From: Sphingomonas qomolangmaensis
Lineage (GTDB): Bacteria > Pseudomonadota > Alphaproteobacteria > Sphingomonadales > Sphingomonadaceae
Direction of reading: 5' to 3'
DNA length: 64,000 nt
NCBI RefSeq assembly: GCF_024496245.1
Contig: NZ_CP101740.1
Location: 1,549,501 to 1,613,500 of the forward strand
Part shown: in pieces, positions 39,796 to 48,370 of the stretch
Layout of the letters: each line of letters begins with the position of its first letter
Numbering within the stretch: the stretch's first letter is position 1
The notes under the pieces: model-generated
What the model was told of the DNA's origin: nothing
The model's input: the letters and a program-made list of their open reading frames with translations, nothing else
Database searches by the model: none
Translations under genes and position numbers: made by a program

Positions 39796-40066
39796 TCGTG
39801 AAGATCGTTACCAGCGTCGCCGCGAGCGATAGAAGGCCGATCACCAATAACAACACCGAGTCGCTACCGAGCAGCGATCGCATGCCAAGAAGAAAGAGCA
39901 AGTTGATCGCGGGCAGGCCCAATAGCACTAGCCACCCCTCGATGCTGGCCGGCGCGGCGGAGAACCGGCCCGGGATAACGCTATAGATAAACCAGGCCCT
40001 GCGGCCCGATCCCGGCGTGTCGGGCGCCGGGTCCTCGCCCGAGCGCTCGATGTTCTCGTCGTTCAT
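39764..40066 (-). CDS. Small two-helix membrane protein
   Basis: A 100-residue protein with a hydrophilic N-terminus (MNDENIERSGEDPAPDTPGSG) and two hydrophobic helices: IEGWLVLLGLPAINLLFLLG and SVLLLVIGLLSLAATLVTIF. It ends with a basic ARIRGRPHR tail, so N-in/C-in topology is likely. ATG 40066 overlaps the preceding stop as ATGA. The family is not recognised. The position between the Ig-like genes and the S41 peptidase suggests a membrane anchor or partner for them. Confidence 0.72.
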   Translation of the reverse strand: MNDENIERSGEDPAPDTPGSGRRAWFIYSVIPGRFSAAPASIEGWLVLLGLPAINLLFLLGMRSLLGSDSVLLLVIGLLSLAATLVTIFTIARIRGRPHR

Positions 40067-40485
40067 TGTCGGGTCACGAATACGACGCGGTGCGGCGCGA
40101 CCGAGGATCCGTCCAGACCTCGAAAGTTCTGGTACCGCGGGTTGTTGACGGAGAAGCCGTAGCGCCTGCCAGGCGCGACACGCACGCGCAGTTCGAACAC
40201 CCGTCCGTCGCGCGACAGGCGCGGCGGCGCCGTGACCTCGAGCGGAGTGGTGGCGGAGACGTCGGTGATGGAATAGCTTCCATGCCGCACCGGCCGATCG
40301 AACACGACGCGCACGAGCAAATCGCCCGGCCGCACTGCGACGGCGCCGTCGCGAGGCGTCGTTTCGACGACGCGAGGGGGCGTTCCGACGGTCCCCTGCA
40401 ACGCGGCGAATGGCGGCAAACCGTTCACGACGACCGGCGCCATCCCGAGCGCGACGCAGGCAAGAACGCTCGCCGGCAGTATCAT
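40063..40485 (-). CDS. Exported Ig-like (Big_5-type) domain protein
   Basis: A 140-residue protein with the signal peptide MILPASVLACVALGMAPVVVNG, then one beta-rich domain: VVETTPRDGAVAVRPGDLLVRVVFDRPV, then ELRVRVAPGRRYGFSVNNP and the ending NFRGLDGSSVAPHRVVFVTRQ. These match the bacterial Ig-like Big_5 theme (an N-terminal contrast strand and a closing GxxxxPxxxxF strand). It overlaps both neighbours by 4 bases (ATGA), so translation is coupled. It resembles the upstream gene's product in its C-terminal half, suggesting an old duplication with a different cellular location. The function is unknown. Confidence 0.74.
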   Translation of the reverse strand: MILPASVLACVALGMAPVVVNGLPPFAALQGTVGTPPRVVETTPRDGAVAVRPGDLLVRVVFDRPVRHGSYSITDVSATTPLEVTAPPRLSRDGRVFELRVRVAPGRRYGFSVNNPRYQNFRGLDGSSVAPHRVVFVTRQ

Positions 40486-40883
40486 GGCGCGGTGTGGAAC
40501 CCGACGAGATACGGCACCAGCGGCGTACCGCTGCGATCTTTGAAATTGAAATGGGCGTTGTTGTTCAGCCAGAACGCGTAGATGCGACCGGGTTCCAGCA
40601 CCAACGACAGGCTAAGTTCGGTGTCTTCGGCGCTCAATTGCGGCAATCCGTCGATCTTCGGAATCGAGTCGCGCCCATATTCGATCACGCTCCAGGACTG
40701 ATCGGCCATCGGCTCGCTAAACGTGATCCGCAACTCGCACGGCCCCGGGGGGACGTTGCGGGTGCCGGTAGGGATGCTCACGGCGGTCACCACCGGGGGG
40801 AGCCTGTTGCTTAGATCATTGTCGCCACGCACAATCCAGTCGCTGACGTACGAGTCTAGGCCCGCCTGAAGAGAGTCAGTCAT
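40482..40883 (-). CDS. Ig-like (Big_5-type) domain protein without signal peptide
   Basis: A 133-residue first gene of the operon, with GGGAGAAGG before ATG 40883. The domain matches the next gene: VVTAVSIPTGTRNVPPGPCELRITFSEPM, then LSLVLEPGRIYAFWLNNNAHFNF and a closing GTPLVPYLVGFHTAP. No signal peptide is present: the N-terminus MTDSLQAGLDSYVSDWIVRG is amphipathic and acidic, so this copy is probably cytoplasmic or exported by another route. That makes the pair unusual, one Ig-like copy on each side of the membrane. The function is unknown. Confidence 0.7.
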   Translation of the reverse strand: MTDSLQAGLDSYVSDWIVRGDNDLSNRLPPVVTAVSIPTGTRNVPPGPCELRITFSEPMADQSWSVIEYGRDSIPKIDGLPQLSAEDTELSLSLVLEPGRIYAFWLNNNAHFNFKDRSGTPLVPYLVGFHTAP

Positions 40884-41126: not shown

Positions 41127-42041
41127 ATGCGAATGATCGATGCTCCTCGCAAAGTCGCCGCGCAGATTCGCGATCCTCGAGCCGCCTATGCCGGAGGAGA
41201 CCTGCAGACTGACAACATCAATGCTCTGGAACGGTTCGATGCTTCCTTCCGCTTCGATTGCGATTCGTTGGATCGGGCCCGGCTTCGCTACGAAGCTGAC
41301 ACTGGTCGCGCCTCGGTGCATGTGTCCGAAGCTACCCCGTTCGTGTTCCGCTATCTGCTCGAAGAGGCGTTTGTCGGCAACTTGCAGGGCCGCGAACGCA
41401 TCCAGTTCCACATCGTCGGTTCGGGCGAATATACCGTCAGCTTCGACAGCGAGGAAGTCGAGGTCGAAGCTGGCTGGACCGGCGAGCCCACCGCGCGGTT
41501 AGTAACAAGTCGCGAGACTTTTGGCGGCATGACGTTGTTCAAGGTGATGGCCGCGTCGAGCGCCGCACAGCAGCGACAGCAGACATTAGGAGCCGAAGTC
41601 GGGCGCGAATTGTCCGATCACCAACTCGCCAGCGTCGCTGGCGGCAAGGGAAGGTCTGGAGACGGATGTTGGAGCGATACCGGGTGCGGCGGCGATATTC
41701 TCGTGGTGGGCTGCCGCAGCAACTATGACGGCTGCGCGGGCGATTATTGCGCCAGCGCAGGTTGCGGCATCGACGGCTGCGCCGGCGCGGCCTGCGGGGC
41801 CGATTACGGCGGCGGCGGCGGGTGTGCCGCCGATGGGTGCATTGGCGCGGCTTGCGGTGCCGACGCCTGCGGTACCGCGGGATGTGGCGCGGCAGGGTGC
41901 GCCGCGGACGCTTGCTACCAGGATCTATGCGGCGCCGCGGCTTGCGGCGCGGATGCGTGCGGCGCAGCGATCTGTGGCGCGGATGCCTGCGCGGTCGATG
42001 CCTGCCTGATCGATTTCATCCCTGGCGTGCCGTTCGTCTGA
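41127..42041 (+). CDS. RiPP precursor with long leader and cysteine-pentad core
   Basis: A 304-residue precursor; ATG 41127 follows AGGGGAAAGTT. Residues 1-173 form an unusually long leader with a beta-rich, folded-looking section (about 35-120: FDASFRFDCDSLDRARLRYE, RIQFHIVGSGEYTVSFDSEE), then a helix and the classic double-glycine signal ELSDHQLASVAGG (172-173). The core, 174-304, has 21 cysteines. From residue 203 to 297 it is built from 19 five-residue units C-x-x-D/A-x, with Cys at every fifth position except one (Gly228). The chain ends in a hydrophobic DFIPGVPFV. A radical SAM maturase and a C39 exporter follow, so the core is probably cross-linked and exported. The product is unknown. 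Confidence 0.88.
   Translation: MRMIDAPRKVAAQIRDPRAAYAGGDLQTDNINALERFDASFRFDCDSLDRARLRYEADTGRASVHVSEATPFVFRYLLEEAFVGNLQGRERIQFHIVGSGEYTVSFDSEEVEVEAGWTGEPTARLVTSRETFGGMTLFKVMAASSAAQQRQQTLGAEVGRELSDHQLASVAGGKGRSGDGCWSDTGCGGDILVVGCRSNYDGCAGDYCASAGCGIDGCAGAACGADYGGGGGCAADGCIGAACGADACGTAGCGAAGCAADACYQDLCGAAACGADACGAAICGADACAVDACLIDFIPGVPFV
41733..42017 (+). repeat. 19-unit, 15-bp coding repeat (Cys pentads)
   Basis: This encodes residues 203-297 of the precursor. Cys falls at 203, 208, 213, 218, 223, 233 and every fifth residue to 293; unit six is GGGGG. Aspartate is the fourth residue in 11 units (CGADA, CAADA, CAVDA and similar). The codon-level repeat is degenerate, so selection on the protein pattern is more likely than recent slippage. 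Confidence 0.9.
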
Positions 42042-42113
42042 GGCTGGCCGCCAGGAATACCGGAATGCGCCGCTTCGGCTAATGCACGAGATCGGCAAGG
42101 GGGAATTGCGATC

Positions 42114-43574
42114 ATGCGAGCAGCACCATCACGCTACACGCTCACCATTCCGCTCCGCGGCGATCGGATGCTTGCCTATAACAGCGCCTCACAGCATTTC
42201 GCGCTCTGGGATGCCGATGACGTCGCCGCCTGGAAAATGATCGATCGCGGCGAATTGGCGGTGACCGACGCGGCGGCCAGCGAGTTCCTCCAGTCCCGCT
42301 TCGCGGTGTTCGACGGACAGGACGAACTTGCCGGAATCGAACGCGAATACATGGCCTCGCGTCTGTCGGAACAATCGTTGCAGATTACGGTGTGCACCAC
42401 ACTCTATTGCAATCTTGCATGCTCTTATTGTTTCCAGGGCATGGTGAAGCCATCCACCAAGATGAAGGCGCCGGTACGCGAGGCAATTGTCGAATATGCC
42501 CGTCAAACGGTGCTACCCGGTGGCCACTTGTCGGTCGGTTGGTACGGTGGCGAGCCGCTTATGGGCCAGGAGGCGCTGTTCGATTTGGCCGCGCGCTTCG
42601 ACGATCTCTGCGAGGAAAAGCGCGCCAGCCGCTCGAGCTTCATCATCACCAATGGATATCTGCTGACGAGCAAGCTTGCCCGCAAGCTGACCGAAACCGG
42701 GGTGAGCATCGCCCAGGTCACGCTGGATGGCCCGGCGGCGATGCATGACGAACGCCGGCCATTGCTGTCGGGCAGGGGAAGCTACGAACGCATTCTCGAC
42801 AATCTGTGCGACGTCGCCGATAATTCCACCCTGCCCGTCTCGATCCGCGTCAATGTCGACATGACGAATTGCGACGCGGTGTATGAGATGCTCGCCGACC
42901 TGAGTCGACGCGGCCTTGGGCTCGGCAAGCGGTTGTCGGTATATTTCGCGCCGGTCGAGGCTACCACGATCGACTGCGCGAGCTGTCACAGCTCGACGTT
43001 GCAAAAGGAGGCGTACGCCGCGTTCGAGATCGACGTCGCGCGCGAAGCGGCCCGCCTGGGCCTGGCGCTCGCGCCGCCGGGCGGCAAATTCATGGGGCTA
43101 TGCCAGGCGGTGCGGCCACGCAGCATCGTGGTGACACCGACCGGCGACGTCCACAAATGCTGGGAAACCGTCAATCAGCCCGAGCTTAGGCATGGCAACA
43201 TCTTCGACATGGCAGCCGCAAACAAAAGCGCGGTCGCGACGCGCTGGGCGGCGTGGACACCGTTCGACAATGATGTCTGCCGAGAGTGCCGCATCTTGCC
43301 GATGTGCGCGGGGGCTTGCGCGTTCAAGACGGTGCATAGCGATCAGCAGTCGGGTGAATCGTCGCTGCCCTGCCCCAGCTGGAAGTTCAACGTCGCCGAG
43401 CGGATGTTCCTCCGCGCCGAGCAGAAAGGCTTGGTCACACGCGGCGACTGGATTGATGGCATCTCGGGCACGAACCGCCCCACCGGCCGCATAACCGGCG
43501 AGCGTCAAAGTACCGCATCGGTTGGCAATGCAGCGATGCGGCTCGACGGAATCGCTGCGTTCGAAATGGCCTGA
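42114..43574 (+). CDS. Radical SAM/SPASM peptide maturase
   Basis: A 486-residue RiPP maturase, with GGGGGAAT before ATG 42114. The N-terminal 90 residues (TIPLRGDRMLAYNSASQHFALWD) resemble the leader-proximal region of SPASM maturases. The radical SAM cluster ligands are Cys99, Cys103 and Cys106 (CNLACSYCF), followed by GGE at 145-147 (WYGGEPLM). Auxiliary cluster ligands are visible at Cys330, 349, 389, 392, 398, 402 and 420, the CxxCx5CxxxC spacing typical of SPASM; Cys288/291 are extra. Such enzymes form thioether or carbon-carbon cross-links. With a Cys- and Asp-rich core, thioether (sacti- or ranthi-type) bonds are the best guess. Confidence 0.92.
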   Translation: MRAAPSRYTLTIPLRGDRMLAYNSASQHFALWDADDVAAWKMIDRGELAVTDAAASEFLQSRFAVFDGQDELAGIEREYMASRLSEQSLQITVCTTLYCNLACSYCFQGMVKPSTKMKAPVREAIVEYARQTVLPGGHLSVGWYGGEPLMGQEALFDLAARFDDLCEEKRASRSSFIITNGYLLTSKLARKLTETGVSIAQVTLDGPAAMHDERRPLLSGRGSYERILDNLCDVADNSTLPVSIRVNVDMTNCDAVYEMLADLSRRGLGLGKRLSVYFAPVEATTIDCASCHSSTLQKEAYAAFEIDVAREAARLGLALAPPGGKFMGLCQAVRPRSIVVTPTGDVHKCWETVNQPELRHGNIFDMAAANKSAVATRWAAWTPFDNDVCRECRILPMCAGACAFKTVHSDQQSGESSLPCPSWKFNVAERMFLRAEQKGLVTRGDWIDGISGTNRPTGRITGERQSTASVGNAAMRLDGIAAFEMA

Positions 43575-43580
43575 CGGGCA

Positions 43581-44456
43581 GTGGTGCGCTACTGCCATCT
43601 ATCAGCCGCTCAACGCCCCGACTTCGCGACGCTGACATATCCCAGTTTCGTCGGTCGGCTTTGCAACGGCCGTCGCGATGTCATCGCGATCGGAGCAGTG
43701 GATCGCGCCGACGCGCCGATAGGGCTGGCGCTGGGCTACATCGCGGGCAGCGGCGCGCACTTGCTGTCGCTCACAGTCGCAGCGCCCGCGCGGCGTGCGG
43801 GGCATGGCAGACGCTTGCTGGATTGCTTCGTGGCAGCCGTGCACGATGCGGGAGCCCAGCGGATCGAGGTGATCGCGCCACTCTCTTCTGAAAATACCCC
43901 GATAGGCCTGCTTACCGGCGGAGGGGGGCGCGACTGGACTCGCGCTGGCCTGGCGACGGTGACGATCAAGGCCGAGCCCGAGCGTGTCGCTGCGGCGCTC
44001 GCCGCGCGCCGCATCCGGACCGTGCCGCACTGGACGCTCATGCCGTGGTCGTACCGGCCCGACCCCTGGTGGGCGCCGTCCGACCTCGCACCGTCGAAAT
44101 TCATCCCGCTGGCGACCGATGGCCGCCCGTGTTGCGCGTCAGCGACCGTCGAAATCCGCCATGGCGGCGCACTGGCGGGCTGGATAGTTGCGCACGACAT
44201 GGGCCAAGGCTGGCTACGGGTCTCCAGCAGCTTCCTCAAACAAGGTGGCGGTGCCCGGCGAGCGGTGTTCGACTTGTGGCGGCGCTATTTCGCGATGGTC
44301 GCCGAGCAGGGTTGGGCAACGGTAACGTTCGCGACGACCGAGGATCACGGCCCCTTTTTCGCGTTCCTGAACCGCTGGGCGCCCGAATTTGCGCAATGGT
44401 GGGGGTGTTCGGCGCCTTTCTCCCTCACCATGCCGAAATCCGCCCATGCCGGTTGA
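43581..44456 (+). CDS. Tandem GNAT-fold acetyltransferase-like protein
   Basis: A 291-residue protein starting at GTG 43581, 6 bases after the maturase stop. The N-terminal half has a GNAT core with LLSLTVAAPARRAGHGRRLLDCFV (RRAGHGR acetyl-CoA loop) and ENTPIGLLTGGGGRDWTRAGL. The second half (about 150-290) looks like another GNAT fold (GWIVAHDMGQGWLRVSSSFL, VTFATTEDHGPFFAFLNRWA) without a clear Q/RxxGxG/A loop, so it may bind substrate only. It may acetylate the leader, the core or the final peptide, or serve as a recognition unit. It ends overlapping the HlyD start by 11 bases. Confidence 0.75.
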   Translation: MVRYCHLSAAQRPDFATLTYPSFVGRLCNGRRDVIAIGAVDRADAPIGLALGYIAGSGAHLLSLTVAAPARRAGHGRRLLDCFVAAVHDAGAQRIEVIAPLSSENTPIGLLTGGGGRDWTRAGLATVTIKAEPERVAAALAARRIRTVPHWTLMPWSYRPDPWWAPSDLAPSKFIPLATDGRPCCASATVEIRHGGALAGWIVAHDMGQGWLRVSSSFLKQGGGARRAVFDLWRRYFAMVAEQGWATVTFATTEDHGPFFAFLNRWAPEFAQWWGCSAPFSLTMPKSAHAG

Positions 44457-45774
44457 ACCAGGGGGCCAGAGCGGTAACACGGTGGTGGCGCGACGGCGTA
44501 TCCCCCGGCGCGCGCCCGAAGCGAACGAGGTCGGGCTGTTCCGCGCGGAGGCGCTGCGCCGGCGCCATGAAATAAGCCAACCGCGTCCGTTGGCGATCGC
44601 GCCGCCGGCGTGGTCGGCGGTTTCTCTGCTGCTGCTCACCGGCTTCGCGGTGGTGGCGTTGTTCCTGTTTTTCGGCAGTTTTGCGCGAAAAGAGACGGTT
44701 GCCGGGGCGCTTCGGCCGGTGGAAGGCGCGGTCTTGTCCACCACCGACCGATCGGGAATCATTGCCAAGATCCACGTGCGCGAAAACCAGCTCGTCCGTG
44801 CCGGGGATCCTCTCTACGACGTCCGTACCGAGTCGACCTTGCTGGACGGCCGCACGCTCGCGAATGAATCGATGGCGGTGCTGGAAGCGCAAGACGGCAT
44901 CGCTCGCCTCGAGGCCGGCGCGCGGGTTGCCCAGACGATGGCCGAATTAGCCAGCGTCCAGCAACGTGCGAAGGCGGGTGAAGCCTCGATTCAGGGGCTG
45001 CGGGTGCGCCATGCCTTGGCCGCTCGACGCCGCATCAACGCGGAGAAGCAGGTAGAGGCTGCGCGGCCGTTGGTCGAAAAGGGCTTCCTTAGCCGGCAGG
45101 AGCTCTACCGGCGAGAAGACGCGGCGCTGTTCGCGGGGCTGGAAGAGGCGCAACTCGCGAGCGAGCTCGTGCAGACCGAGGAGGCGCGCGCCGGCTATCA
45201 GCTCGACGCACAAAGACTGCGTGCCAGAGCGTCGGGCGAGGAGGCGCAGTCGGAGATGGCCGCCACGCAATTGCGTGAACGGCAGTTGTCAGCGGCGCAG
45301 GACCGTGGTTTCAGGGTGCGTGCCGCGGTAAGCGGGCGCGTCAGCGGCCTACGCTTGACCGTCGGTATGCGGGCCGATCCGGGCCAACCCGTCCTCACCT
45401 TATTGCCCGAGAATGTGCCGCTAGTGGCTGACCTGTACATTCCGTCTAGGGCCGTCGGCTTTGTCCTCGCCGGGCAGCCGGCGCGGTTGATGTACGAGGC
45501 GTATCCTTTTCAGAAATTCGGTGTCGGCCAAGGCACGGTGGTCAGCGTTTCCCGAGGTCCCGTCACACCGGCCGATCCGGTGTTCGCGGAATCGGAAAAG
45601 GAGCCGGTCTATCTCGTGCGGGTAGCGCTTGCGCAGCAGACGATCGACGCCTTTGGCGAGCGGCACCCGCTACGGCCCGGAATGATGCTGAAGGCGGATC
45701 TTATCTTGGAGAAGCGCAGCATTTTCGAATGGATGATCGACCCCGTCCTTTCCAGTTCACGACGGCTGCAATGA
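44446..45774 (+). CDS. HlyD-family membrane fusion protein (type I secretion adaptor)
   Basis: The periplasmic adaptor of a bacteriocin-type exporter, 442 residues. After a cytoplasmic basic N-terminus there is one membrane helix (AVSLLLLTGFAVVALFLFFG). Lipoyl half-domains are VLSTTDRSGIIAKIHVRENQLVRAGDPLYDV and FRVRAAVSGRVSGLRLTVGMRADPGQPVLTLL, with a long alpha-helical hairpin between them (about 125-290) and a C-terminal beta-barrel (RPGMMLKADLILEKRSIFEW). ATG 44446 overlaps the GNAT stop; its own stop overlaps the ABC start (ATGA). It works with the C39-ABC protein; an outer-membrane TolC partner is not in the window. Confidence 0.92.
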   Translation: MPVEPGGQSGNTVVARRRIPRRAPEANEVGLFRAEALRRRHEISQPRPLAIAPPAWSAVSLLLLTGFAVVALFLFFGSFARKETVAGALRPVEGAVLSTTDRSGIIAKIHVRENQLVRAGDPLYDVRTESTLLDGRTLANESMAVLEAQDGIARLEAGARVAQTMAELASVQQRAKAGEASIQGLRVRHALAARRRINAEKQVEAARPLVEKGFLSRQELYRREDAALFAGLEEAQLASELVQTEEARAGYQLDAQRLRARASGEEAQSEMAATQLRERQLSAAQDRGFRVRAAVSGRVSGLRLTVGMRADPGQPVLTLLPENVPLVADLYIPSRAVGFVLAGQPARLMYEAYPFQKFGVGQGTVVSVSRGPVTPADPVFAESEKEPVYLVRVALAQQTIDAFGERHPLRPGMMLKADLILEKRSIFEWMIDPVLSSSRRLQ

Positions 45775-47882
45775 AGATCGAGCCGTCGCCGTGGTTGGAC
45801 TTCGGCCTGTTCAACTCCTTTCGGCTGATTCGGCAGGCGGAGACCTCCGAATGTGGGCTCGCCTGCATCGCCATGATCGCGAACCACCATGGCCTGCGTG
45901 TCGAGGTCAGCGAGCTGCGTCGGACCCACGAGATGTCGGTACGAGGGTCTACCGCGCGCGACCTTGCACTTACCGCCGACCGGCTGGGGATGAGCACCCG
46001 CACCGTGCGATGCGAGTTGGAGGACCTTGCTAAGCTTCGGTTGCCGGCGATCGTCCACTGGGATCTCGGGCATTTCGTGGTCCTTCACCGGGTCCGCGGA
46101 CGCAAGCTGTTCATCGCCGATCCGTCGTCGGGTTTACGGTCCTACGATATGCTGGAGGCATCCCCCCATTTTTCGGGCGTGGCGATCGAGATGGCCCCCG
46201 CACCGCACTTTCAGCGCCAGCAATCCGAGCCAGCGCTGAGCCTGCGCAAACTGCTGCGGATAAGCCCGACGCTGGCCTTTTCTTTCGCGCAGGCGCTGCT
46301 GTTGTCGCTGCTGATGCAGGCGGCGCTCCTCGCGGTTCCGGTCTACATGCAGCTCGTCATCGACGAGGGGCTGCAGCGGGGCGACCGCGATATCTTGGTG
46401 CTGCTGCTTCTGGCGGTCATCGCAGTCACTTGCTTCGTCGCAATCGCCTCGTTCATCCGTGGCCTGACGGTGCAGTTCATCACCCAGTTGCTTGCGTTCG
46501 ACATGAATTCCGCGGTCTTTCACCATCTTGTCCGGTTGCCACTCAGCTATTTTCAGAAGCGGCAGGTGGGCGATCTACAGCAACGATTTCGCTCGCTGCT
46601 GCCGATACAACAGGCGTTGGGGTCCGGCGCGGTGACAGGTATAATCGACGGCGTTCTGTCGTTGGCAACAGCGGCGCTGATGATGGTTTACAGCTTGCCC
46701 TTGGCGCTATGCGTCCTGATGTTCGTGACGCTACCCGTATTGATCCGGCTATTGTCGCTCAGTGCCAGCCGGAACGCTGCGGGTATGGCGCTCGCCGCAG
46801 AGGCGCGCGAGCAGACCCGGTTTTTGGAAACGCTGCGAGCGATCGCCACGATCAAGGTGAACGCCGCCGAAACTCCGCGGGAGGATTTCTGGCGGTCGAG
46901 CGCGGCGTCCAACATCAACGCGCAGGTCAAGCGCGGAAACATCCTTCAGGTGACCGGCGCGATCAACCAGCTCATCGCCGGCCTTGGCGATGCGATCATC
47001 ATCTTCCTGGGCGCGCGTATGGTGCTGGCTGGAGAGCTAACTATCGGCGTCCTCACTGCTTTCATCGCCTATAAGCAACTATTTGCTTCGCGCGTCACCG
47101 CGTTCACCGAGCAGGTAATCACCTTCACGCTGCTGGACGTACAGCTCGAGCGCGTCGCGGATATCGTGACTTCGCCGCGCGAAGCGAAAATCGACGAACA
47201 CGCGCTGGAAGGCGAAGTTATCCGCGGCGACGTCGAGCTGCGCGACGTAAGCTTCCGCTATTCCGGGTTCGACCCGCTGATCCTAGACAATGTTAATCTC
47301 AGCGTCGCGGCGGGCGAGTTCGTCGCGATCACCGGGCCATCGGGTGGAGGCAAATCCACCTTGCTGCGCCTGTTGATCGGGCTATCGCAGCCGACATCCG
47401 GAATGGTTCTGATCGATGGGAAACCGCTGGCGACCTGGGGTCCGCGACCGATCCGGGCGCAAGTGAGTTTCGTGATGCAGGACGACCAGCTCTTCGCCGG
47501 TACGTTGCTCGACAATATCACCTTGTTTGCCAGCGACCCCGATATGGAACGCGTGCGAGCCGCCGTGTGCGCCGCGGCAATCGAGGAAGAGGTCGCCGCG
47601 ATGCCGATGGGGTTAGGCAGCCTGATCGGCGATATGGGCTCTTTGCTTTCCGGCGGCCAGAAGCAGCGAATATTGATCGCTCGCGCGCTGTATCGACAAC
47701 CACGCATACTCATCATGGACGAGGGGACCTCGCATCTCGATATTGCGCGCGAAGCCGCCATCAACGCCGCCATCCGCAAGCTCGACGTTACGCGGATCGT
47801 CGTTGCTCACAGACCCGAGACTATCCGCGCCGCCGATCGCGTTTTGGAGTTGACCGGACGATGCCTGCGCCTCGCCGCATAA
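45771..47882 (+). CDS. Peptidase-domain (C39) ABC exporter
   Basis: An inner-membrane processing exporter of 703 residues. The N-terminal C39 cysteine protease has Cys28 (RQAETSECGLACIAMIA), His101 (DLGHFVVLHRV) and Asp117 (FIADPSSG); this class cuts leaders after double glycine, matching VAGG in the precursor. A transmembrane domain spans about residues 165-440. The ATPase has Walker A GPSGGGKST (522-530), signature LSGGQ (626-630) and Walker B LIMDE (about 647-651). ATG 45771 overlaps the HlyD stop. Together with HlyD it should cleave and export the modified core peptide. Confidence 0.95.
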   Translation: MKIEPSPWLDFGLFNSFRLIRQAETSECGLACIAMIANHHGLRVEVSELRRTHEMSVRGSTARDLALTADRLGMSTRTVRCELEDLAKLRLPAIVHWDLGHFVVLHRVRGRKLFIADPSSGLRSYDMLEASPHFSGVAIEMAPAPHFQRQQSEPALSLRKLLRISPTLAFSFAQALLLSLLMQAALLAVPVYMQLVIDEGLQRGDRDILVLLLLAVIAVTCFVAIASFIRGLTVQFITQLLAFDMNSAVFHHLVRLPLSYFQKRQVGDLQQRFRSLLPIQQALGSGAVTGIIDGVLSLATAALMMVYSLPLALCVLMFVTLPVLIRLLSLSASRNAAGMALAAEAREQTRFLETLRAIATIKVNAAETPREDFWRSSAASNINAQVKRGNILQVTGAINQLIAGLGDAIIIFLGARMVLAGELTIGVLTAFIAYKQLFASRVTAFTEQVITFTLLDVQLERVADIVTSPREAKIDEHALEGEVIRGDVELRDVSFRYSGFDPLILDNVNLSVAAGEFVAITGPSGGGKSTLLRLLIGLSQPTSGMVLIDGKPLATWGPRPIRAQVSFVMQDDQLFAGTLLDNITLFASDPDMERVRAAVCAAAIEEEVAAMPMGLGSLIGDMGSLLSGGQKQRILIARALYRQPRILIMDEGTSHLDIAREAAINAAIRKLDVTRIVVAHRPETIRAADRVLELTGRCLRLAA

Positions 47883-48370
47883 GTGCCCGGGCGCCCGCCC
47901 GAGTCGCTCCCGATCTGCACTTCGTCGAGGGGAGGGTGATCGGTGTTCAGAGCCATACCGGCCGCCACAAGATGCTTTTGGCGCCGTACCCGTTGACACT
48001 GTCCGGGATCCGGGAGCGCTTCACCTTTTCCGCCCGACGATGCGAACTCTTCGACAATTTGCAGCGCTACATCACTGCCGCGCGCGCGCTTTCGCATCCG
48101 CCGCTATTGCAGATCATATCCGGCAGCTTCGTCGACGACACGGAGGAACCCGGCGATATCGATCTCGCCAACATCGTCGATTCCATCGATGAAGAAGCCA
48201 TGCCTCTGCTGTTCGATCCCGATTTCACGAAAGCGACCTATGAAATCGACGCCATCACCGTGTGTCTATCGGATGACGCGCTCGGCAACGCGCTAGCACT
48301 GCTGAGGATCGGTAACTATTTTTCAAGCCGTCGCGATGGCCTGCACCGGGCCTACATCTGGGTGATATAG
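47861..48370 (+). CDS. DUF6932-like (nucleotidyltransferase-fold) protein ending the RiPP operon
   Basis: A 169-residue protein whose ATG lies 22 bases inside the exporter gene, so it is surely co-transcribed. The central block IISGSFVDDTEEPGDIDLANIVD has the GSF...D.D signature of the minimal nucleotidyltransferase superfamily (the DUF6932 type), with a further acidic segment YEIDAITVC. The N-terminus is basic. It could be an immunity/self-protection protein, a core-modifying enzyme, or a nucleotidyltransferase toxin-like unit; nothing in the sequence decides. It ends the RiPP block, 79 bases before a broken ArsR gene. Confidence 0.65.
   Translation: MPAPRRISARAPARVAPDLHFVEGRVIGVQSHTGRHKMLLAPYPLTLSGIRERFTFSARRCELFDNLQRYITAARALSHPPLLQIISGSFVDDTEEPGDIDLANIVDSIDEEAMPLLFDPDFTKATYEIDAITVCLSDDALGNALALLRIGNYFSSRRDGLHRAYIWVI

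What the first reader, a model, noticed from the sequence alone, without database searches (positions are those of the whole stretch)
41127..48370. A complete RiPP operon with an unfamiliar precursor
The six genes in order are: double-glycine precursor, radical SAM/SPASM enzyme, tandem GNAT protein, HlyD adaptor, C39-ABC exporter, DUF6932-like protein. The five after the precursor overlap or lie within 6 bases of each other. Maturation, leader cleavage and export are all accounted for. The precursor architecture does not match the classes I know (lanthipeptide, classic sactipeptide, SCIFF, freyrasin-type). This is the strongest candidate in the window for an undescribed natural-product system.
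Basis: partly seen in the sequence, partly recalled or inferred. Interest (0 to 1): 0.92.

Follow-up and report, generated by a model that had tools for sequence, protein, structure and literature searches.

The report
Cys-repeat RiPP operon with SCP2-like leader
This is a real gene set that probably makes, staples with sulfur links and exports a cysteine-ladder protein; it belongs to a loose family whose chemistry seems unstudied and whose members attach a similar stapled tail to very different carrier proteins.

Summary
In detail: six co-directional genes, 41127-48370. The first encodes a 304-aa precursor: a 173-aa leader ending in GG and a 131-aa core with 21 Cys. The 'unfamiliar class' is only partly right. 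The core passes NCBIfam NF038108 (Cys-every-fifth CefA); the maturase is TIGR04463-like over its full length but below the cut-off (444 vs 525 bits). RefSeq already pairs these names on a Methylomagnum plasmid. What seems new is anatomical. (1) The leader is a weakly SCP2-like domain shared by many relatives; in Bradyrhizobium/Methylorubrum-type loci a related domain is a separate protein. (2) Five-residue spacing is packing of a basic unit, Cys-X-X-[D/N/E/A]: where the next Cys is not at +5, +3 is still polar in 129 of 212 cases, against 0-2% at +1, +2 and +4. (3) Similar Cys modules sit on lectin, LysM, PPC or collagen-like carriers. Best reading: iterative thioether cross-linking, then C39 cleavage and export. 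Chemistry and function are untested. GNAT and DUF6932 have unknown roles.

The parts
41127..41645 (+). Precursor leader, residues 1-173: weakly SCP2-like domain, then ELSDHQLASVAGG double-glycine site
   Evidence: PF02036 18.3 bits over residues 91-143, below the 21.3 cut-off; 8 of 35 aligned family members hit PF02036 at E<=0.01, best 8.6e-5; G173 invariant in 35
41646..42041 (+). Precursor core, residues 174-304: 21 Cys in C-X-X-[D/A/N] units, mostly every fifth residue, tail CLIDFIPGVPFV; includes the stop codon
   Evidence: NF038108 43.9 bits vs cut-off 30; unit list
42114..43574 (+). Radical SAM/SPASM maturase, 486 aa, TIGR04463-like
   Evidence: TIGR04463 444 bits full length, cut-off 525; C99/C103/C106 and C330, C349, C389, C392, C398, C402, C420 invariant in 25
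43581..44456 (+). GNAT-fold protein, 291 aa, role unknown
   Evidence: PF00583 23.7 bits vs 20.7; no homologue but itself among the 8000 candidates that were scored
44446..45774 (+). HlyD-type periplasmic adaptor, 442 aa
   Evidence: HlyD_3 PF13437 56.1 bits, scanned from the upstream TTG of the same frame; ATG start checked
45771..47882 (+). Peptidase-C39 ABC exporter, 703 aa
   Evidence: PF03412 115, PF00664 112.8, PF00005 106.8 bits; ECGLAC, GHFVV, ADPSSG and Walker motifs present (motif meanings recalled)
47861..48370 (+). DUF6932 protein, 169 aa; holds GSF-x8-GDIDL, which resembles a nucleotidyltransferase motif (recalled, not tested)
   Evidence: PF22014 63.3 bits

Best explanation
A RiPP-type secretion operon. 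(1) The SCP2-like leader domain presents the precursor to the radical SAM/SPASM enzyme (inferred from conservation and from the occurrence of a related separate protein beside other maturases). (2) The enzyme works along the core and acts on repeated C-X-X-Psi units (Psi = D/N/E/A), most likely making thioether links from Cys sulfur to the residue at +3 (inferred). In the window 14 of 21 units have D/N and 7 have A at +3. (3) The C39 domain cuts after GG173, and the ABC/HlyD pair with a TolC-type channel from elsewhere in the genome exports a rigid, multiply stapled 131-residue product (domains shown; act inferred). The product is probably a stable extracellular module; whether it attaches, builds, binds or kills is open. 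GNAT and DUF6932 are accessory: tailoring or self-protection (guess).
For: Domain set and tight spacing. 10 of 10 loci read have a Cys-repeat ORF beside the maturase. +3 is D/A/N/E in 621 of 636 Cys of 31 SCP2-leader precursors; where the next Cys is not at +5 it is still D/A/N/E in 202 of 212, while -2 (where the previous Cys is not at -5) is mixed. Polar residues (D/N/E/K/Q): 129 of 212 at +3, against 2 of 212, 4 of 212 and 1 of 210 at +1, +2, +4, and 6-17% at -1 to -4. The rule, with K added, holds in 238 of 247 Cys of nine other precursors, several with 7/9/10 spacing. The best-scoring solved maturase is 5wgg (98.7 bits; that this is the SCIFF maturase CteB is recalled). PapB accepts Cys-Xn-Asp with n=0-6, so a CX2D link has precedent (PMC9413430, abstract and passages). 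Six open frames with OEP/TolC-type domains lie elsewhere in the genome.
Against: Ala at +3 in 7 of the window's 21 units and 256 of 636 in the SCP2-leader set does not suit a PapB-like Asp/Glu chemistry; either those units stay open or the link is at another carbon. The maturase is below the TIGR04463 cut-off and Pfam SPASM is below its own (13.9 vs 21.5 bits). No characterised member was found. No structure was obtained. The SCP2 match is sub-threshold, and the precursor profile found no solved structure better than E 0.32. No promoter or terminator stood out over shuffles.
Confidence: 0.6

Rival explanations
1. The product is a bacteriocin-like natural product (microcin type) and DUF6932 and/or the GNAT give self-protection.
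For: GG leader, C39-ABC and HlyD, as in NHLP-type export models; 7 of 35 aligned precursors also hit the CTB bacteriocin model at E<=0.01 and one hits Bacteriocin_IIc; compact operon with orphan accessory genes; 1 of 151 genus genomes, a patchiness often seen for weapon genes (recalled).
Against: No recognised immunity gene. In relatives similar Cys modules are attached to carriers of 534-1191 aa with lectin, LysM, PPC or collagen-like parts, which is unusual for an antibiotic.
Confidence: 0.3
2. A secreted structural or attachment module: a stapled solenoid that anchors or stiffens extracellular proteins.
For: Carriers are extracellular binding or fibrous domains: RicinB lectin + crystallin (L004, L083), LysM (L006), PPC (L007), collagen-like (L002); C-terminal [ND]-[VILF]-[ILVN]-P motif in 38 of 40 sequences tested across carriers.
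Against: In the window the core has no carrier after cleavage; the L002 precursor does not end in the motif (not among the 40); no fold could be computed; no surface-anchoring gene in the operon.
Confidence: 0.35
3. Chemistry is alpha-carbon (sactionine) linkage or another radical SAM reaction (epimerisation, C-C link), with the +3 residue conserved for folding only.
For: Ala at +3 is common and would suit Calpha linkage; the enzyme also scores to other kinds such as DynA (92.9 of 450 bits).
Against: Polar residues restricted to +3 even outside the five-residue lattice point to side-chain involvement; scores to Clo7bot (230) and PapB (101.5) are higher than to DynA, although Clo7bot chemistry is not known to me.
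Confidence: 0.3
4. Metal-binding Cys protein (metallothionein-like) with radical SAM used for something else.
For: 21 Cys in 131 residues.
Against: Adjacent dedicated maturase in 10 of 10 loci read; strict +3 rule unlike known metallothionein CxC/CC patterns (recalled).
Confidence: 0.07

Closest known systems
NCBIfam CefA/CefB (NF038108/NF038107) and TIGR04463 rSAM_vs_C_rich
   Same: Core passes NF038108; maturase is full-length TIGR04463-like; RefSeq pairs CefA with TIGR04463 on a Methylomagnum plasmid.
   Different: Maturase below the TIGR04463 cut-off (444/525) and far below CefB (188/600); NF038108 matched residues 256-298 only, so the leader is outside the match. Among nine relatives with other or long carriers NF038108 passes in five, not in L002 (16.3 bits), L006, L007 or L008.
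Freyrasin PapA/PapB (ranthipeptide)
   Same: Repeated Cys...Asp units and a radical SAM/SPASM enzyme; PapB accepts Cys-Xn-Asp with n=0-6 in vitro (PMC9413430, passages).
   Different: Natural PapA units are CX3D; here CX2[D/N/A]; PapB model 101.5 of 340 bits; long domain leader.
NxxcA (ranthipeptide)
   Same: Link between Asn20 and Cys23, two residues between (PMC8326336, passages).
   Different: Acceptor is before the Cys; here it would be after; one link against up to 21.
SCIFF maturase CteB
   Same: Best-scoring solved structure, 5wgg (98.7 bits; identity as CteB recalled).
   Different: SCIFF means six Cys in 45 residues; TIGR03974 scores 73.9 of 425.
NHLP and Nif11 leader RiPPs (proteusins)
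   Same: Long leader derived from a protein domain (recalled) and GG site; NHLM_micro_ABC1 is the best exporter model though below cut-off (473.6 of 853.3); one core (P0040) carries an NHLP-like leader (32.6 of 50.9 bits, below cut-off).
   Different: This leader is SCP2-like, with no NHLP or Nif11 model hit at E<=1.

Membership tests
CefA (NF038108) | Score above curated cut-off | tested here: met
   43.9 vs 30 bits; 24 of 35 aligned family members match at E<=0.01
TIGR04463 maturase | Score above curated cut-off | tested here: not met
   444 vs 525 bits, full length 1-438; in the phylum sample 3 of 398 genomes matched at 1e-90 and 0 of 398 passed the cut-off
TIGR04463 maturase | Cys-rich target encoded alongside | tested here: met
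   The window and 10 of 10 loci read
CefB (NF038107) | Score above curated cut-off | tested here: not met
   187.8 vs 600 bits
Ranthipeptide | Thioether to a non-alpha carbon | not testable with these tools
   Needs MS/MS and NMR
Ranthipeptide, PapB type | CX3D/E units and a PapB-family enzyme | tested here: not met
   Units are CX2[D/N/A]; NF047865 101.5 of 340 bits
Radical SAM/SPASM enzyme | CX3CX2C and SPASM cysteines | tested here: met
   C99-x3-C103-x2-C106 and seven further invariant Cys in 25 rows; TIGR04085 SPASM 54.7 vs 27 bits, but Pfam SPASM 13.9 vs 21.5
SCP2 domain (leader) | PF02036 gathering score | tested here: not met
   18.3 vs 21.3 bits; 8 of 35 relatives at E<=0.01
SCP2 domain (leader) | SCP2 fold | not testable with these tools
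RRE-dependent RiPP | RRE domain in the maturase N-terminus | not tested
   About 90 residues precede the radical SAM domain (95-231); no RRE model was run

The most novel reading that the evidence does not exclude
The family is a protein-stapling system and not mainly a natural-product pathway: an SCP2-like handle, fused to the substrate or supplied as a separate protein, guides a radical SAM enzyme to cross-link C-X-X-Psi tail modules carried by otherwise ordinary secreted proteins (lectins, LysM, PPC, collagen-like fibres). The window shows the minimal form, in which the stapled module itself is the exported product.
Probability: 0.35. Interest if true: 0.8.

Novelty: new variant of a known kind. 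Interest (0 to 1): 0.52.

Why it matters
NCBI models already name the core and the enzyme type, but ten searches of the held paper library showed me no characterised member. The C-X-X-Psi rule gives an exact, testable prediction of where the enzyme acts. The leader domain, fused in most precursors seen and detached in one clade of three loci, is a natural test of leader recognition in trans and could be a general handle for cross-linking chosen proteins.

Tried and rejected
Close kin in genus, family and class: none beyond the genome itself at the limits used, so synteny and co-conservation of GNAT/DUF6932 could not be tested there. GNAT and DUF6932 had no tblastn match in loci L002-L081 (L083, L092 and L093 came later and were not searched this way, and many loci are cut by contig ends); the closest relatives P0002-P0008 and P0048-P0052 came without DNA. 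Viral contigs: no relative. Flanking HSP70 as a synteny anchor: matched in 4 of 31 genomes, own included; not followed. GC content gave no sharp island edge. Pentapeptide-repeat fold for the core: no Pfam pentapeptide hit at E<=1; not pursued. A strict C-x4-C scan of L002-L011 found a true repeat only in L004, plus off-frame or opposite-strand hits in L004 and L007; the other Cys ORFs have wider or fewer spacings.

Literature: ten searches of the held library. TIGR04463, Cys-every-fifth and SCP2 with RiPP terms gave 0 papers; 'ranthipeptide' gave 129, of which 40 were listed and few looked at. Most subscription papers are not held, so this is weak evidence that nothing is in print. Papers seen: PMC9413430 (abstract and passages), PMC8326336 (passages), PMC7470986 (passages); the rest only as listings.

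Linkage by identical longest-contig length (120 of 317 maturases were listed) pairs 8 of 45 precursor hits with a listed maturase. This is a proxy; P0032/P0078 may be a coincidence, since P0078 groups with L003 in the tree. Rows left out before counts: P0036, P0037, P0039, P0044 (no GG motif) and P0001 (own), leaving 41; the SCP2-leader set is the window plus 30 of P0002-P0035 (P0022, P0025, P0029, P0033 left out, P0029 being counted in the other set), and P0037-P0039, P0041-P0046, L002, L003, L005 and L092 were not used. first gave HlyD one base off and was corrected.
Full report
What is there. Six genes run in one direction from 41127 to 48370: precursor (304 aa), radical SAM/SPASM enzyme (486 aa), GNAT-fold protein (291 aa), HlyD adaptor (442 aa), C39-ABC exporter (703 aa), DUF6932 protein (169 aa). 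There is a 72-base gap behind the precursor; the rest are spaced by a 6-base gap and overlaps of 11, 4 and 22 bases.

The precursor. Residues 1-173 form a leader ending ELSDHQLASVAGG; residues 174-304 hold 21 Cys. Seventeen of 20 Cys-Cys gaps are multiples of five, against at most 11 in 20,000 shuffles. The protein search gave 46 hits at E<=1e-3 (one is the window's own), the seven best others at 43-59% identity over 96-100% of the length. In a 35-row alignment G173 and several Cys are invariant. Six of the seven closest relatives begin M-x-x-I-D-[SN]-x-R in register with 41127; the database's own gene call starts 47 residues later.

The enzyme and the names it already has. The core passes NF038108 (Cys-every-fifth CefA; 43.9 vs 30 bits). 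The maturase covers all 438 positions of TIGR04463 (rSAM_vs_C_rich) at 444 bits but misses its cut-off of 525; CefB gets 188 of 600, Clo7bot 230 of 600, PapB 101.5 of 340. The best-scoring solved structure is 5wgg. On a Methylomagnum ishizawai plasmid RefSeq has annotated a CefA peptide directly before a TIGR04463 maturase, followed by a RiPP radical SAM C-methyltransferase. So the kind is on record as models and annotation; the window is a divergent member.

Distribution. The maturase at E<=1e-60 is in 1 of 151 genus genomes and 1 of 397 family genomes, its own included; with profile A1 at 1e-100, 1 of 385 in the class, own included; with TIGR04463 at 1e-90, 3 of 398 in the phylum, own included. 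It is sporadic. In every related locus that I read a Cys-repeat ORF lies beside the maturase (10 of 10: L002-L008, L083, L092, L093; L003 fragments only, L005 cut). The other 73 scan loci (22-34% identity) were not read for context.

The unit is C-X-X-Psi. In 31 SCP2-leader precursors, 621 of 636 Cys have D, A, N or E at +3. Within a five-residue lattice +3 of one Cys equals -2 of the next, so I looked only at Cys whose neighbour is not five away: +3 is D/A/N/E in 202 of 212, while -2 is mixed (G, T, S, D, V, P lead). Polar residues stand at +3 in 129 of 212, at +1, +2 and +4 in 2 of 212, 4 of 212 and 1 of 210, and at -1 to -4 in 6-17%. In nine precursors with other leaders or carriers, where gaps of 7, 9 and 10 are common, +3 is D, N, K, A or E in 238 of 247. 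The acceptor, if there is one, is therefore most likely the residue at +3. PapB makes CX3D links in nature and accepts Cys-Xn-Asp with n=0-6 in vitro (PMC9413430); NxxcA links Asn20 to Cys23, the other direction (PMC8326336). Against a simple Asp chemistry, Ala fills 256 of 636 +3 positions in the SCP2-leader set and 7 of 21 in the window.

The leader is a domain and it moves. Pfam SCP2 hits it weakly (18.3 vs 21.3 bits), and 8 of 35 relatives hit at E<=0.01; the profile found no solved structure better than E 0.32, with a match of the SCP2-like region to 3cnu at E 0.53. Profile comparison (E-values for single comparisons) ties the family leader to the leaders of the Desulfogranum and Parvularcula precursors (5.6e-22) and of a Rhodobacteraceae precursor (1.2e-11), and ties those of Desulfogranum/Parvularcula to a separate 165-168 aa protein between core and maturase in Methylorubrum, Bradyrhizobium and a third genome (2.1e-21). 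The direct comparison of that separate protein with the window family is weaker (1.3e-5, probability 81%). On a 22-row maturase tree the three separate-protein loci form one clade (100/100) beside two fused ones, and the two lectin carriers form one clade (100/99). The labels of eight unnamed rows rest on equal contig lengths, five forks are open, and the root is not resolved.

Carriers. Similar Cys modules follow a ricin-lectin and crystallin protein (L004, L083), a LysM protein (L006; its near copy in L093 was not scanned), two PPC stretches (L007), an about 900-residue collagen-like, E/D-rich stretch (L002) or an NHLP-like leader (P0040). The C-terminal [ND]-[VILF]-[ILVN]-P motif is in 38 of 40 sequences tested, missing in P0040 and P0029, and L002, not among the 40, does not end in it. 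NF038108 passes in five of the nine carriers scanned, not in L002, L006, L007, L008, so the wider family is held together by the maturase, the +3 rule, the leader and the tail more than by five-residue spacing. The carriers speak for a secreted structural or binding module in at least part of the family.

How it probably works. Shown: gene order, domains, motif rule, shared leader. Inferred: leader docking to the maturase, iterative cross-linking at C-X-X-Psi, cleavage at GG173 by C39, export through HlyD and a TolC-type channel (six open frames with such domains elsewhere in the genome). Unknown: bond type, number of links, function, roles of GNAT and DUF6932. DUF6932 contains GSF-x8-GDIDL, which looks like a nucleotidyltransferase motif (recalled). 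No fold was obtained.

Verdict. Real and well observed; a new variant of a kind that is named in NCBIfam but, as far as my searches reach, not characterised.

Noticed in passing
L002:10443-14015: Rhodobacteraceae Alg231_30 precursor, open frame of 1191 residues: SCP2-like leader, about 900 residues of acidic collagen-like triplets, then a short Cys module (CGADACAVDAGG).
   Followed up: partly
L006:8323-8820, L093:10892-11386, L005:560-1066: A relative of the leader domain as a separate 165-168 aa protein between the Cys-repeat ORF and the maturase. In L005 and L006 no C39 domain was matched; L093 was not searched for it.
   Followed up: partly
L007:6909-7856, L008:12224-13066, L093:8254-9159: Proteins of 281-316 aa with a shared ending like 'DW[IV]FWP' and no Pfam hit at E<=0.1, beside TIGR04463-like maturases: possible further tailoring or export gene.
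   Followed up: partly
L083:13440-16823: Methylomagnum plasmid cluster adds a radical SAM C-methyltransferase and a 2OG-Fe(II) oxygenase to the CefA/TIGR04463 pair.
   Followed up: no
L003:10500-11300: In a Rhodobacteraceae MAG the precursor region is spread over several frames and looks broken or mis-assembled.
   Followed up: no
window 40063-40883, - strand: Two adjacent small genes overlapping by 4 bases, divergent from the operon, with Ig-like Big_5 hits (26.3 vs 23.6 bits; the second 18.2, below cut-off).
   Followed up: no
Named control genomes: Thermus composti and Deinobacterium chartae ring with TIGR04463, not over the cut-off; a Thermus thermophilus plasmid carries a 34% relative.
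   Followed up: no
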